Shown here one piece after another: positions 3,772 to 61,185 of a stretch of 64,000 bases of DNA. Position numbers and translations under genes: made by a program. This DNA is from Bacteroidaceae bacterium (GTDB lineage: Bacteria; Bacteroidota; Bacteroidia; Bacteroidales; Bacteroidaceae): the NCBI GenBank assembly GCA_024684455.1, contig JAIKWU010000013.1, forward strand, positions 1 to 64,000. Direction: 5' to 3'. The first letter of the stretch is position 1, and every line of letters begins with the position of its first letter. The notes under the pieces were generated by a model. It was given only the letters and a program-made list of their open reading frames with translations. It was not told where the DNA came from and did not search any database.

Positions 3772-3850
3772 CGCACCGCAGTGTAACGAAATTTACACTG
3801 CGGTGCGTCTATAGGTGTACTGCAGTGCATTTAAATTTACACCGCAGTGC
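3772..3850. repeat. Four-unit 22-bp-phased palindrome array, family A (copy A1)
   Basis: Four 12-bp imperfect palindromes lie at 3773-3784, 3795-3806, 3817-3828 and 3839-3850: GCACCGCAGTGT, ACACTGCGGTGC, GTACTGCAGTGC and ACACCGCAGTGC. Their centres are exactly 22 bp apart. Units 1 and 2 also form a perfect 15-bp hairpin (3772-3786 with 3793-3807, 6-nt loop) that on the minus strand is followed by six T. It could therefore end the GH5-GH43 transcript. It also sits 57 bp upstream of the -33 box of the next minus-strand gene. Confidence 0.85.
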
Positions 3851-15676: not shown

Positions 15677-15759
15677 CGCTAAGCACTTGACGTTCATACG
15701 CTAAGCACTTGGCGTCGTCACGCTAAGCACTTGGCGTGAATTTTCCAAGCACTTGGCAT
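15677..15759. repeat. Four-unit 22-bp-phased palindrome array, family B (copy B1)
   Basis: Seventeen-base units start at 15677, 15699, 15721 and 15743, exactly 22 bp apart: CGCTAAGCACTTGACGT, CGCTAAGCACTTGGCGT, the same again, and a degenerate last unit TTCCAAGCACTTGGCAT. Each is an imperfect palindrome about CGCCAAG-CA-CTTGGCG. The 5-bp spacers differ. The array fills most of the gap between rseP and the FAA hydrolase gene. Confidence 0.9.
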
Positions 15760-15809
15760 TGCGAAAAATGTGAAGTGGATGACATCAAGAACCATCAAGC
15801 CCTATCGAC

Positions 15810-16424
15810 ATGAAAATACTCTGCGTAGGCATGAACTATGCCGCACACAATAATGAAATGAATCATTCGTTATTAAGAAAGGAGCCTGTCATCTTTGCAA
15901 AGCCCGATACGGCACTGCTTAGGACAGGACATCCGTTCTTTGTGCCCGACTTTGCAGAGCGTTTCGACCATGAGGCAGAAGTGGTCGTACGCATCTGTCG
16001 TTTGGGCAAGGACATTGCCGAACGCTTTGCCCACCGCTACTACGAAGAGGTGACGCTGGGCATTGACTTTACGGCACGCGACCTTCAGCACCGACTGCGC
16101 AGCGAAGGGCTTCCGTGGGAAGTGTCGAAGGCGTTCGATGGAAGTGCGGCGGTGGGCGAGTTTGTCCACAAAAGTGAACTGCCCGACATTCAGGACCTGC
16201 ACTTCCGCCTTGAGGTGGACGGCGAGACACGACAGGTGGGACACACTGCCGACATGTTGCATACGGTCGATCAGATCATTGCCTACTGCAGCCGCTTCTT
16301 CACCCTCCGCATGGGCGACCTCCTCTACACAGGCACACCCGCAGGCGTCGGACCTGTCCACGAGGGGCAGATGCTGACAGGATGGCTGGAAGACCGTCAG
16401 GTGATGAAGTTCAGGGTAAAATAA
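15810..16424 (+). CDS. Fumarylacetoacetate hydrolase family protein
   Basis: A 204-residue FAH-fold enzyme starting MKILCVGMNYAAHNNEM. It has the conserved FAKPDTALL, the metal ligands in FDHEAEVVVRI (the E-x-E pattern) and a later aspartate in LGIDFTARDLQ. GDLLYTGTPAGVGPV is the C-terminal substrate loop. The family includes acylpyruvate hydrolases and oxaloacetate decarboxylases/tautomerases, and sequence alone does not say which this is. It is preceded by palindrome array B1 and by no obvious TAnnTTTG box. Confidence 0.88.
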   Translation: MKILCVGMNYAAHNNEMNHSLLRKEPVIFAKPDTALLRTGHPFFVPDFAERFDHEAEVVVRICRLGKDIAERFAHRYYEEVTLGIDFTARDLQHRLRSEGLPWEVSKAFDGSAAVGEFVHKSELPDIQDLHFRLEVDGETRQVGHTADMLHTVDQIIAYCSRFFTLRMGDLLYTGTPAGVGPVHEGQMLTGWLEDRQVMKFRVK

Positions 16425-16495
16425 AGCCGCCAAGCCTGCTCCCAGCGAAAGGGAGGGCGAATTCAAAAACATTATTTTGACTCTATATAAGTGGT

Positions 16496-19400
16496 ATGCA
16501 CACGCTGTTAAAACATAAACTTCTGCTTTTCGTCTGCTCACTATTCTTTATCTGTGCAGACGGCATGGCTCAGACCTATGCCCAACACTCGGTGCTGTCG
16601 AGCGGGCGATGGGTGAAAATTCGTGTCGATGCAGCCGGTGTCTATCAACTGACTGCGAACCAGTTGCGCTCGATGGGTTTCAGCAATCCCGACCGTGTGC
16701 GGCTCTATGGTCTAAACCTCGAAGTGCTGCCGGAGACACAGATTGAAAACATCGACGACGACTTGGTGGAGATGCCCCTCTACCGCACGGGCGACCGCCT
16801 GCTGTTCTACGGCCGTGGTGCCACTCGCTGGACACTCACATCGGTCAATGCCGCCACAGCCACGTTCACTCACTTCAACAATCCCTACAGCCGCTACGTC
16901 TATTATTTTCTGACGGAAGTGAGCGATGCTGCTCCGAAGGAGTTTGAGAAGTATGCCTACGAAATCGGCAGCGGTGCAAGAACACAGACGACGACACCAG
17001 CCTACACGCTCATCGAAACCGACGGTTTCAGTTATCTGCGTTCGGGACGAACCTTCTTCGACGATTACGACTTTCTCTCGGGCAAGAGCCGCGACTACCG
17101 GCTCAACATGCCTGGCTTGGTCGGCGGATCGACCAAAGTCAACCTGTCACTGCAGTTTGCCACCGCCGGCATCTCCAGTTCTTCGCTCGACGTGAGTGTT
17201 GATGGTGAAATGATGACCACGCTGACCTTCGGTGCGCTGGGCGACTTTGAATACGGAAAGATGCGCTCCACCACCATCTCGTTCGATGCTCCTGGGAGCG
17301 ACGGCTGCAATGTCAACCTCCTTCACAACCGTGTGTCGGGCATCAGCGGACACCTCGACTATCTCCGCGCCAGTTACATCCGACGGCTCTCCATGACCGA
17401 AGGACAACTGCTCTTCCGTCCGTCAGCCGGTGGCGATGTGATTTTCCAGGTGACGGGCGGCACGGCCGAAACGGTGTTCTGGCACGTCAACACCGCCAAA
17501 GAGATTGAAGAAGTGGCAGGCACCTTTGACGCGGCTACAGGCACATGGAGCGTTCCCTTCAGCAGCAGCACTACCACGTCAACGGCATGGCGCACAGAAG
17601 AACTCGTCGCCGTCAATCCTGCTACGACCTTCCCCACCCCGACCGTGTGCGGCGAGATAGCCAACCAGGACCTTCACTCGATTCGCGACATCGACTTCGT
17701 CATTGTCGTGCCTACCAGCGGACACCTCGTCACACAGGCACGCCGGTTGGCCGACGCACATACTGCCCGCGACGGGATGCGCTGCATCGTATTGACAGCG
17801 CAACAGATATACAACGAGTTCTCTTCAGGCACACCCGATGCCACCGCCGTGCGCCGCTTTATGAAGATGCTTTACGACAAGGCAGACACCGATGCCAACC
17901 GTCCGAAGAACCTGCTGATGTTCGGTCCTGCCATCTGGGACAACCGCATGGTCACGGTCAATACCCGCAGTTACAACCCCGACGACTTCCTGCTGACCTA
18001 CGAGAGCGATGCCTCGCTGCACCTTGTGAGCAGTTACATCCTGACCGAATACTATGCCCTGCTGGACAACAACACGACTGGCGACGTGCTCCGCTGGAAG
18101 CCCCGCATCGGCGTTGGCAACATCCCCGTCCGCAACAATGCCGAAGCCAAGAGCGTGGTCGATAAACTCATCACGTATATCAACAACGAGCAGGTGGGCA
18201 ACTGGAAGAACGTCATCTGTATCATGGCCGACGACGGCAATGAGAATATCCACATGCGCGACGGTGATGCTGTCTATAAGGAAATCTCCGAAGCCGCACC
18301 TGACATACGCCTGCGCCGCATCTACTGGGACACTTACATGAAAGAAGTGTCATCGACTGGCGAGACTTATCCAGGTGCCTACACCGACATCAACCGCCAG
18401 ATGCTGGAAGGTGCGCTGGTGATGGACTATTCAGGCCACGGCGCAGCCCACTGTCTGTCGCACGAACTCGTGTTGCAGACATCAGACTTTGCCCGTTGGA
18501 ACACGCCGCGCCTGCCCCTTTGGGTTACAGCAGGCTGCGACATCTCGCCCTTCGACATGGACCGTGAAAACGTGGGTGAGACAGCCATCAAGAATCCCCG
18601 TGGTGCCGCCATGGGTTTCTTGAGCACCACCCGAACTGTCTATCCCGACCCGAACCGTGAACTCAACCGCCGCTTCATGCGCTACTGTGTCACCAACAAT
18701 GCAGAAGGTCACCAGTACACCCTCGGGCAGGCACTCTCGATGGCAAAGTGTGAACTCATCGACATCAGTTCCAACCCGACCAACAAGGCTCACTTCGTCC
18801 TGCTCGGCGACCCAGCCATCCATCTGGCCATCCCTACCTATAAGATAGAAATCGACCGCATCAACGAGACCTATGCTCCAGGCACTCCTTACTCCGCCAG
18901 TGCAGGCAGTCTGCTGACTGTCGAGGGACACATCGTCAATACCGAGGGACAACTCGCCGACACTTTCAACGGCACCATCTTCCCCATCATACAGGACAAT
19001 GAGGAAACCGTCGTCTGCAAGAACAATGCCAAGGACGACGTCACCCCCTATACCTTCAAAGACCGTCTGCGCACCCTCTACACCTGTGCCGACAAAGTCG
19101 AAGGCGGCAAGTTCACCTTCACTTTCCCCATTCCTCTTGACAACAACTACAGCGGTGAGACAGGGCTTATCTCCCTCTATGCCGTCAACAACGAATCGTC
19201 GTTGGAAGCCAACGGACGTTTCACCAACTTCGCCGTCGGCGGCACGTCGGCCGACCTGCCTGCCGACACAGAAGGACCCACCGTCACCCTTAGTCTCAAC
19301 AACGACCAGTTCCGCGACGGTGACGTCGTCAACGAGACCCCCCTTCTGCTCGCCAACCTCTTCGATGAGCACGGCATCAACATGACCGGCAGCGGCATCG

Positions 19401-29792: not shown

Positions 29793-30749
29793 CTACAGAA
29801 TCCATATTCTCGTAAGTGCGCTGAAGAAAGCGTACTTGCGAGAATATCTTTTATAGGGCAAGGGGAAGAGGCGTCGCTCGCGCAGCAGGCAAATCTGCCG
29901 TCGGAGCGTGGCCAACGAGTGAGTCCATTGCCAGACGTTCCAAACAAAATCCATCGTGAGTTGCGACACACGCCGGCGCAAGGCGTCCTGTTCCCGTCCT
30001 GACAGAGTGCCGCAGATGTGGTCAAGGTAGGCAATGGTGGCAAAGGCATCGGCAATCTTCTGCACCGTCGCTTCCTTCGCCTTGTTTCCTGTAGCCGATG
30101 CTGCATTTTTCCGATAGATGTAGGCTGGCACATCGGTTGCAACGGTCTTGCCGGCACGCAGCAGCATCTGAGCCGTCCAACGCTCGTCTTCCGTGAATTT
30201 CACCCCAAGCGGAAAGAGTACCTGCTGTGCCACGTCGCAGCGAACCACATAGTTCCAGCAGGCACCGTGAACATTGTTCTCCAGCATATACTGTGTCCCC
30301 GTCTCATACTCATCACTTCGTTGTACTTGGTACTTGGTACTTGGTACTTGATGCCTGAACGTCAGCACATCGGGCCGATGCTTACGCAGCAGCGGCAGAA
30401 GTTCGGTCTTGAACAGCGAAGCGTCCAATTGGTCATCGGCATCGACAAACTCCACATATTCTCCCGTTGCAATCTGCATACCCGTATTCCGTGCTGCACT
30501 CACCCCCATATGGTCGTGTTCCGCCAAAACGATGCTGTCGCCGTAAGTGGCGAGCATCTTCTTGAGTGACTCGATGTCGCGGCTTCCGTCATCGACAACA
30601 ATGATTTCACGTTCCGACTGCTGCAAACCTGCATGGAGCAGACTTTCTATGCAGTCGTCCAGACTCGGGAAAGCGACATTGTACGTGGGGATGACAAACG
30701 ACACAAGCGGCCGAGGTTGCGACCCGCCTATCTGAAGAGAACCTGACAT
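29793..30749 (-). CDS. Family 2 glycosyltransferase with a heptamer-repeat tract
   Basis: A GT-A fold enzyme of about 318 residues starting MSGSLQIGGSQPR. An ATG at 30803 is also in frame but would overlap the upstream gene by 76 bp instead of 22. It shows VSFVIPTYN, VVDDGSRD, VSAARNTGMQIATGEYVEF and the metal-binding VDADDQL. It is probably a surface-polysaccharide or O-antigen transferase with an unknown acceptor. A tract of four 7-bp repeats (30324-30351) lies in frame at about residues 133-142 (VPSTKYQVQ). Its last codons are in a 44-bp inverted repeat. Confidence 0.9.
   Translation of the reverse strand: MSGSLQIGGSQPRPLVSFVIPTYNVAFPSLDDCIESLLHAGLQQSEREIIVVDDGSRDIESLKKMLATYGDSIVLAEHDHMGVSAARNTGMQIATGEYVEFVDADDQLDASLFKTELLPLLRKHRPDVLTFRHQVPSTKYQVQRSDEYETGTQYMLENNVHGACWNYVVRCDVAQQVLFPLGVKFTEDERWTAQMLLRAGKTVATDVPAYIYRKNAASATGNKAKEATVQKIADAFATIAYLDHICGTLSGREQDALRRRVSQLTMDFVWNVWQWTHSLATLRRQICLLRERRLFPLPYKRYSRKYAFFSALTRIWIL
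30324..30351. repeat. Heptanucleotide tandem repeat inside a glycosyltransferase gene
   Basis: TACTTGG occurs three times in tandem (30324, 30331, 30338) and a fourth copy ends in A (30345-30351). The unit length is not a multiple of three, so gain or loss of one unit would shift the reading frame of the glycosyltransferase. Confidence 0.9.
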
Positions 30750-31786: not shown

Positions 31787-31869
31787 CGCTAAGCACTTGG
31801 CGTAATGACGCTAAGCACTTGGCGTGATAACGCTAAGCACTTGGCGTGAAATTTCCAAGCACTTGGACG
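31787..31869. repeat. Four-unit 22-bp-phased palindrome array, family B (copy B2)
   Basis: Units start at 31787, 31809, 31831 and 31853. The first three are identical (CGCTAAGCACTTGGCGT) and the last is degenerate (TTCCAAGCACTTGGACG). This is the same order and unit pattern as copy B1, 16 kb away, while the 5-bp spacers differ. It lies between divergent glycosyltransferase genes and ends 22 bp before the plus-strand ATG. Confidence 0.92.
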
Positions 31870-36506: not shown

Positions 36507-36585
36507 TGCACCGCAGTGTAACGAAATTTGCACTGCGGTGCGGCTATAGGCATACCGCAGTGCATCTGAAAACGCACCGCAGTGC
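36507..36585. repeat. Four-unit 22-bp-phased palindrome array, family A (copy A2)
   Basis: Twelve-base units at 36508, 36530, 36552 and 36574 (GCACCGCAGTGT, GCACTGCGGTGC, ATACCGCAGTGC, GCACCGCAGTGC) have centres exactly 22 bp apart. The spacers are also close to those of A1, with ACGAAATTT and CTATAGG shared, so A1 and A2 are diverged copies of one element of about 80 bp. It lies between the alaS terminator and the promoter box of the GH26 gene. Confidence 0.9.
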
Positions 36586-44292: not shown

Positions 44293-44375
44293 CGCCAAGT
44301 ACTTAGAAAAAATACGCTAAGCACTTGGCGTGAAATCTCCAAGCACTTGGCGTAAAAATTCCAAGCACTTAGCCT
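44293..44375. repeat. Four-unit 22-bp-phased palindrome array, family B (copy B3)
   Basis: Units start at 44293, 44315, 44337 and 44359: CGCCAAGTACTTAGAAA, CGCTAAGCACTTGGCGT, CTCCAAGCACTTGGCGT, TTCCAAGCACTTAGCCT. It is more diverged than B1 and B2 but has the same four units and the same spacing. It lies 38 bp upstream of the -33 box of manA. Confidence 0.88.
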
Positions 44376-50364: not shown

Positions 50365-50431
50365 CGCATTTTTCCGCTGACAAACGTCGTTTGCACCACG
50401 GAAAATAAAGCACTGAAGAGTGCCCGATTTT

Positions 50432-50510
50432 GTGGCGCAGTACAAATAAATTCATACCACAGTACAAGTATAAGCATACCGCAGTACAAATTCATCTGTA
50501 CTGCGGTGCG
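50432..50510. repeat. Four-unit 22-bp-phased palindrome array, family A (copy A3, GTAC variant)
   Basis: Twelve-base units at 50432, 50454, 50476 and 50498 (GTGGCGCAGTAC, ATACCACAGTAC, ATACCGCAGTAC, GTACTGCGGTGC) are exactly 22 bp apart. All four carry GTAC where A1 and A2 mostly have GTGC or GTGT. The last two units form an 11-bp hairpin (ACCGCAGTACA with TGTACTGCGGT), followed by GCG and a run of seven T on the plus strand. It lies between the divergent sigma and tetR promoters. Confidence 0.9.
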
Positions 50511-61102: not shown

Positions 61103-61185
61103 CGCCAAGTGCTTGGAAAAATAACGCCAAGTGCTTAGCGTGAAATTTCCAAGCACTTGGAGGAAAAACGCCAAGCACTTGGCGT
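61103..61185. repeat. Four-unit 22-bp-phased palindrome array, family B (copy B4)
   Basis: Units start at 61103, 61125, 61147 and 61169: CGCCAAGTGCTTGGAAA, CGCCAAGTGCTTAGCGT, TTCCAAGCACTTGGAGG, CGCCAAGCACTTGGCGT. Two units are inverted relative to the other two, so the array is partly turned around, yet the 22-bp step is kept. It sits in the 364-bp gap between the small ORF at 60982 and the glycosyltransferase at 61347. The gap otherwise shows only the promoter box at 61306. Confidence 0.9.

What the first reader, a model, noticed from the sequence alone, without database searches (positions are those of the whole stretch)
15677..15759. Seven intergenic arrays of exactly four palindromes on a 22-bp step, with two unrelated core sequences
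Copies: A1 3772-3850, A2 36507-36585, A3 50432-50510 (core RCACYGCRGTGY and its GTAC variant); B1 15677-15759, B2 31787-31869, B3 44293-44375, B4 61103-61185 (core CGCYAAGCACTTGGCG). In every copy I counted four units with centres 22.0 bp apart, although spacers and units have diverged and A and B cores are unrelated. Conserved number and phase with changing sequence suggests selection on geometry: a dimeric DNA-binding protein repeated every two helical turns, or a mobile/structural element with fixed architecture. I know of no description of this class.
Basis: seen in the sequence. Interest (0 to 1): 0.93.

Follow-up and report, generated by a model that had tools for sequence, protein, structure and literature searches.

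The report
Four-site DNA lattices that change sequence
One bacterium and its relatives carry dozens of short DNA arrays, mostly of four mirror-like sites exactly 22 letters apart, that at most compared places keep their position and spacing between two related species while the letters of the sites differ, so the spacing, likely read by a still unidentified DNA-binding protein, seems to matter more than the sequence.

Summary
All seven window arrays hold four 12-bp pseudo-palindromes at exactly 22-bp steps. The genome (2.79 Mb draft) has 382 B-core and 41 A-core pairs; an 842-kb sample holds 71 arrays, and other steps tested give at most one hit each. B arrays mostly have four units (42 of 51). 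Congeners use other cores on the same lattice: H (318 pairs) in G010, D (352) in G002; another genus shows it too.

Main result: at orthologous intergenic sites, G010 has arrays at 13 of 16 places where G000 has one (132 shared gene pairs; Fisher p 2e-7). At 12 of these 13 the units keep the same register relative to a flanking gene (within 1 bp modulo 22) although the core differs (0 of 20,000 permutations). With four more sites it is 13 of 17. Some arrays mix cores in phase. So the lattice is inherited and the sequence turns over.

Best mechanism, inferred: rows of protein dimers every two helical turns, with drifting specificity. No protein was identified. REP/RAYT and BrickBuilt tests fail. 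Function is unknown; B arrays hug stop codons.

The parts
3773..3850 (.). A1: four A-type units (RYACYGCRGTRY), step 22; framed by A and T runs; folds as two hairpins
15679..15756 (.). B1: four B-type units (CYAAGYRCTTRG), 22 bp after the stop of an rseP-like M50/PDZ protease gene; the G010 ortholog has an H/A array 21 bp after the stop
31789..31866 (.). B2: four B-type units between divergent glycosyltransferase genes; G010 ortholog has H units at offsets 139/47 versus 140/25
36508..36585 (.). A2: four A-type units downstream of alaS; near-identical array inside an aligned G010 stretch (575 bp, 89% identical)
44295..44372 (.). B3: four B-type units between an rsmD-like gene (PF03602) and a phosphomannose isomerase gene; only a single degenerate unit, out of register, in G010
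50432..50509 (.). A3: four units of the GTAC-rich A variant; a very weak fifth unit at 50410
61105..61182 (.). B4: four B-type units between divergent mfd-like and glycosyltransferase genes; G010 has an H array there but not in register

Best explanation
These arrays are lattices of mostly four pseudo-palindromic sites on an exact 22-bp step that, between the two species compared, mostly keep place and register while the site sequence differs, and they are likely bound by rows of protein dimers, one every two helical turns, whose sequence preference would drift from species to species. Shown: the step, the usual number four in B and D arrays, the species-specific cores, the shared places and register, and in-phase mixtures of cores. 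Inferred: that a protein reads them, that neighbouring dimers touch (which would fix the step), that at least two specificities (an AG..CT-centred and a CYGCRG-centred one) share the same lattice, and that sites change by point mutation under selection for binding. The flanks between orthologous arrays are often no longer alignable by eye, so mutation has had time to change most bases. What the bound array does is least certain; the position just after stop codons and away from starts suggests a boundary role between transcription units (insulator or roadblock) or simply a place where a bound array does no harm.
For: Step 22 only. B 42 of 51 with four units; D 6 of 6 with four; in another genus 7 of 10 stretches with four (up to 4 mismatches per unit). 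Different leading cores in the three genomes counted: B 382 pairs in G000; H 318 in G010 and 0 in G000; D 352 in G002, 78 in G011, 74 in G004 and 0 in G000, G006, G007, G010. Co-occupied orthologous gaps 13 of 16; Fisher p 2e-7 (5e-4 when both gaps are at least 90 bp); stratified by context and net gap, observed 13 against a mean of 5.6, 0 of 5000. Register kept within 1 bp modulo 22 on at least one side at 12 of 13 sites, 0 of 20,000 in two null models that use the same rule; mnmG 126 against 125 bp. In-phase mosaics: A-H-H-A, four A/H-like then three C units, and J units flanked by H-like units at +/-22. Half-site behaviour: in B units the two arms are identical less often than expected (0.37 against 0.47), and left and right array halves are no more complementary within an array than between arrays (0.465 against 0.542), so stem pairing is not what is kept. 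No exact match to B (3 units), H (2 units) or D (3 units) patterns in viral contigs.
Against: No binding protein was identified. Register failed at 4 of 17 sites (mfd site; murC; dut; aroQ, one side only), and a lone degenerate unit at rsmD is also out of register. G007, as close as G010 by murC, has none of the screened cores at 12 of 12 orthologous loci, so arrays are dispensable there or were gained later. The core-blind scan found no 22-bp array in the stretches held of G001, G003, G005, G009, G010, G011 and G012 (4 to 50 kb each), so the lattice may be absent from several congeners. Pair counts differ among close relatives (G002 352, G004 74, though the G004 core has drifted by a letter). 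The swap between unrelated cores at dozens of places is a heavy load for point mutation alone. Neighbouring genes share no theme, and inter-array distances look random (CV 0.92). H units do show some arm matching (0.415 against 0.33).
Confidence: 0.5

Rival explanations
1. REP-like mobile repeats: the arrays are non-autonomous elements spread by a transposase; a new element type invades old arrays, so cores change while places stay.
For: Many intergenic copies per genome, different leading types in different species, usual place just after stop codons (23 of 24 codirectional B arrays nearer the upstream stop, median 12.5 bp against 99 bp to the next start), array-level consensus with a non-random unit orientation (B -+ 30, +- 6; H +- 41, -+ 11), pair-count jumps between species, short empty gaps in one species against filled gaps in the other.
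Against: No Y1 transposase (PF01797) in G000 or G006, though 7 of 13 genomes have one (genomes 56-89% complete). Places and register are mostly kept between species with different cores, which random insertion does not predict. B arrays show no strong shared ends beyond the units.
Confidence: 0.25
2. RNA elements: the arrays act in transcripts as hairpins, terminators or mRNA stabilisers, and only pairing is conserved.
For: All ten folded strands of six window arrays fold far better than shuffles (z -3.5 to -9.1; A3 not folded). A arrays are framed by A and T runs and 4 of 9 A arrays of the first sample lie between convergent genes (one of the nine a chance match) against 21 of 137 background gaps; in the larger sample it is 2 of 5 with three or more units. 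T-G rather than A-C mispairs on one strand in B and H (95 against 17; 68 against 24).
Against: Palindromes fold well whatever their role. No within-array complementarity beyond the family; B arms within a unit are anti-correlated; RNA gives no reason for a strict 22-bp step or for register conservation; 21 of 50 placed B arrays lie between divergent genes. The mispair bias is absent in G000 A/C units (25 against 22). Rfam found nothing in the window.
Confidence: 0.15
3. Concerted evolution by gene conversion or site-specific recombination between arrays, the unit centres acting as exchange points.
For: Hybrid units with arms of two types joined at a shared CYGCRG centre and in-phase mosaics; asymmetric centres, as in recombinase crossover sites (recalled).
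Against: B and H share no stretch that could seed conversion; no recombinase was looked for beyond PF01797; frequent exchange among so many sites should scramble gene order, yet 132 neighbouring gene pairs are shared by the two samples.
Confidence: 0.1

Closest known systems
REP / BIME / REPIN repeats with RAYT transposases (PMC3733652 abstract and passages; PMC2817692, PMC3686654, PMC8049555 passages seen)
   Same: Abundant extragenic palindromes, species-specific types, mostly downstream of genes, orientation patterns in clusters
   Different: No GTAG or CGTC unpaired tag in B; no Y1 transposase found in G000; strict 22-bp step and usual four units; cores differ in place and in register between species, which none of the passages I saw describes
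BrickBuilt minisatellite MITE of Porphyromonas gingivalis (PMC4596501: abstract and one results section seen)
   Same: A Bacteroidales genome (recalled placement), intergenic, short tandem period (23 nt)
   Different: 1 to 22.8 direct repeats without spacers, leader and tail segments, 19 copies; here mostly four palindromic units with 10-bp spacers and no leader or tail seen
DNA uptake sequence dialects of Neisseriaceae (recalled, not looked up)
   Same: Genome-wide short motif whose sequence drifts between related species
   Different: Single words, not four-site lattices; no register relative to genes
Multi-site operators and chromosome-organising sites such as parS, matS, iterons (recalled)
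   Same: Phased or repeated sites bound by proteins
   Different: As I recall, those keep their sequence across wide taxa or serve one locus; here the sequence changes and the lattice stays

Membership tests
REP/REPIN (RAYT-associated) | Unpaired GTAG or CGTC tag beside the palindrome | tested here: not met
   No such tag in the B columns; in H, CGTC is part of the paired arm
REP/REPIN (RAYT-associated) | Cognate Y1 (RAYT) transposase in the genome | tested here: not met
   0 in G000 and G006; 1-2 in G010, G007, G002; G000 is an 88% complete draft, so absence is not certain
REP/REPIN (RAYT-associated) | Many copies, extragenic, palindromic | tested here: met
   382 B pairs; 1 of 51 B arrays inside a called gene
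BrickBuilt MITE | Spacerless 23-nt direct repeats with leader and tail | tested here: not met
   22-bp step with 10-bp spacers, no strong common flanks in B; feature list from PMC4596501
MITE in general | Terminal inverted repeats and target-site duplication | tested here: inconclusive
   Empty and filled sites printed and read by eye; flanks too diverged to see duplications; array ends are themselves palindromes
CRISPR array | 24-48-bp repeats with unique spacers of regular size and cas genes | tested here: not met
   12-bp units, 10-bp spacers with recurring words; cas genes not searched
Intrinsic terminator (A type only) | G+C-rich hairpin followed by a T run | tested here: met
   A1 and A2 fold as hairpins next to A/T runs; termination itself untested
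Multi-site operator for a dimeric protein | A protein that binds the units | not testable with these tools
   No candidate found; needs pull-down

The most novel reading that the evidence does not exclude
A bacterial DNA lattice whose geometry is the inherited trait: a multimeric protein fixes four binding places every two helical turns, and because only the lattice matters the 12-bp words are free to be rewritten genome-wide, giving each species its own dialect at orthologous places in the same register.
Probability: 0.4. Interest if true: 0.92.

Novelty: categorically new. Interest (0 to 1): 0.85.

Why it matters
Repeats are normally defined by their sequence. Here the sequence is the part that changes and the spacing is what is kept, so searches by similarity miss the class. 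Sets of orthologous arrays with different cores, and mosaics between them, make it directly testable how many genomic sites switch to a new recognition word, a long-standing question for DNA-binding proteins and their sites. It may also reveal an unknown chromosome-binding protein of Bacteroidales.

Tried and rejected
Long hairpin or cruciform of the whole array: rejected, since halves of one array are less complementary than halves of different arrays. Y1/RAYT transposase as the partner: not supported. Regular chromosomal spacing: no, CV 0.92 over 58 gaps. Phage carriage: no match to three patterns. Rfam: no match in the window. A common gene function beside arrays: none seen by eye. G004 array with a GGGGAYGTACTC unit left out as a weak palindrome; G009 18/27-bp hits are 9-bp repeats and were not counted. 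A two-unit A match inside a gene (G000 C35 173834) was dropped before the neighbour list as a chance match. A first pass of the shared-gap table with four cores gave 11 of 16; one search then showed J arrays at two of the missing sites, and the looser J, P and C2 consensus were added for both genomes, so 13 of 16 is partly post hoc. The label J given to some G000 arrays is only a looser consensus for B. The count of family I against family II units by phase gave 12 pairs in phase in each genome but also 7 at one other residue in each, and pairs are not independent, so I use it only for single examples.

Literature: seven paper searches in an open-access library only listed no description of such arrays; subscription papers were not covered.

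Full report
WHAT IS THERE. The seven arrays of the window are real and lie where stated. Each is four 12-bp pseudo-palindromes with 10-bp spacers, so centres are 22 bp apart. A core-blind scan of 464 kb of the own genome found this geometry at step 22 (34 hits, all on A, B or C arrays), once at step 21, never at steps 18-20, 23-27, 33 and 44, and never in three shuffles. The genome (G000, 2,785,829 bases, 98 contigs, 88% complete) holds 382 B pairs and 41 A pairs.

ANATOMY. In 842 kb of G000 I counted 71 arrays of two or more units. Of B arrays with three or more units 42 of 51 have four units, 5 five, 3 three, 1 six. A third core, C (YCACYGCRGTGR), has 11 arrays. Most B, H, A and C units have one mismatched pair near the centre, giving an orientation, while most of the few B/J/P units of G010 are symmetric (39 of 57). 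Orientations are ordered within arrays: neighbouring informative B units read -+ 30 times and +- 6 times; H units +- 41 and -+ 11. In B the inner two units tend to carry ACG/CGT flanks and the outer two face inward with A/T-rich flanks, so the array has an approximate overall symmetry.

PLACE. 1 of 51 B arrays lies inside a called gene. Between codirectional genes the B array is nearer to the upstream stop than to the downstream start in 23 of 24 cases, median 12.5 bp after the stop against 99 bp before the start; of the 50 placed arrays 21 lie between divergent and 5 between convergent genes. Neighbours are ordinary genes, for example murG/murC, dut, dxs and rseP-like by Pfam; the names aroQ, mnmG, radA, leuD, leuC, mdh and tatC are mine, by eye from the protein letters. 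Gene calls are my own codon-usage script, so start codons are approximate.

OTHER SPECIES, OTHER WORDS. Of 13 genomes of the genus, G010 has 318 pairs of another core, H (CGTCYGCRGACG), which G000 lacks (0), and only 42 B pairs; G006 has 27 and G007 17 B pairs. G002 has 352 pairs of D (RCGAGSSCTCGY), G011 78, G004 74, and G000, G006, G007 and G010 none. G002, G004 and G011 form one branch of a murC tree and G000, G007, G010 another. All six D arrays found in the G002 and G004 stretches I held have four units; G004's carry a one-letter change. Against breadth: the core-blind scan found no 22-bp array in the 4-50 kb held of G001, G003, G005, G009, G010, G011 or G012, and for G010 and G011 other calls show that such small samples miss arrays. 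Over 301 genomes of the family, 7 match the A pattern, among them G294 of another genus with 77 pairs; of ten short stretches from G294 and G232, chosen at listed matches, seven show four units in phase, two three and one five, at up to 4 mismatches a unit.

THE LATTICE IS KEPT, THE WORD IS NOT. I compared 132 gene neighbourhoods shared by the G000 and G010 samples. Arrays are present in both at 13, in G000 only at 3, in G010 only at 18, in neither at 98 (Fisher p 2e-7; with both gaps at least 60 bp 13/3/10/32, p 1.5e-4; at least 90 bp 13/2/10/22, p 5e-4; 13 against 5.6 expected when shuffled within orientation and net-gap classes, 0 of 5000). A first pass with fewer cores gave 11 of 16. The G010 contigs were mostly chosen because they appeared in earlier hit lists, which raises the G010 density but should not make the association. 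At the 13 shared places the core differs: B against the unrelated H at 6, C against H (same CYGCRG centre, other arms) at 4, B against the looser J form at 3. Yet the distance from a flanking gene end to the units agrees modulo 22 bp within 1 bp on at least one side at 12 of 13 sites (for example 22 and 21, 140 and 139, 12 and 12, 26 and 27, or differing by exactly 22 or 44); permuted sites gave a mean of 4.2 and at most 11, random phase a mean of 3.1 and at most 10, never 12 in 20,000. Measured from stop codons alone, 5 of 12 distances agree within 1 bp. Four further sites were added afterwards: mnmG agrees (126 and 125 bp), dut, murC and aroQ do not (aroQ measured on one side), so 13 of 17 in all (the second sides of dut and murC I worked out by hand). 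At the rseP site a third species, G006, has a 22-bp repeat with weak palindromes (4 of 6 pairs) centred 5 and 27 bp after the stop, and one off register at 68, against 28 in G000 and 27 in G010.

MOSAICS. G010 arrays often mix cores in phase: A-H-H-A at rseP, four A/H-like then three C units at C34 5181, and J units flanked by H-like units at exactly 22 bp at C123 14000-14100. Units with arms of two kinds joined at one centre occur repeatedly in G010. A2 itself is conserved almost letter for letter between G000 and G010 inside a 575-bp block 89% identical, so not every array changes.

WHAT IT IS NOT. Whole-array hairpin pairing is not what is conserved, nor is matching of the two arms in B units, though H arms match somewhat more than chance. 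No Y1 transposase was found in G000. No viral contig matched, no Rfam family. G007, at least as close as G010 by murC identity (87 against 83%), has no array of the screened cores at 12 of 12 orthologous loci, so the arrays are not needed at each place.

READING. A fixed step of two helical turns, site sequences free to change, tolerance of one weak half-site, and in-register replacement are what one expects if a row of touching protein dimers reads the DNA. That protein is not identified and the function is open. Mobility of a REP-like element into older arrays, RNA roles (most likely for the A type, which looks like a two-way terminator) and recombination between arrays are the rivals. The resemblance to REP elements in habits (number, place, species types) is clear, but two defining REP features were tested and not met. 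I rate the class as categorically new on that ground, with the limit that only an open-access library was searched.

Noticed in passing
L125 and L126 (murG-murC gap of G009 and G012): A different dispersed element (containing AAAACTTTGGAG...AAAGTTCATG) fills this gap, with more than one tandem copy in G012.
   Followed up: no
G000 C1 about 18919-19160 (upstream of aroQ) and L175 (upstream of dxs in G010): A shared motif, AAAGTTACGACTAAGTGAGCGGAA, occurs twice in each of these unrelated upstream regions: possibly another dispersed repeat family of the genus.
   Followed up: no
L110 (G009 C2) near 550-640, 15780-15830 and 16480-16560: 9-bp repeats with CGGACNNGTCGG-like words give steps of 18 and 27 bp; not checked whether coding.
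   Followed up: no
L079 16608, L088 7681, L090 15988: Three of six D arrays of G002 and G004 have the palindrome AACTAGTT right beside an outer unit.
   Followed up: no
window 50432-50509: A3 uses a GTAC-rich variant of the A core and has diverged more than A1 and A2.
   Followed up: partly
window 30323-30350: Perfect 7-bp tandem repeat GTACTTG x4, within an open reading frame.
   Followed up: no
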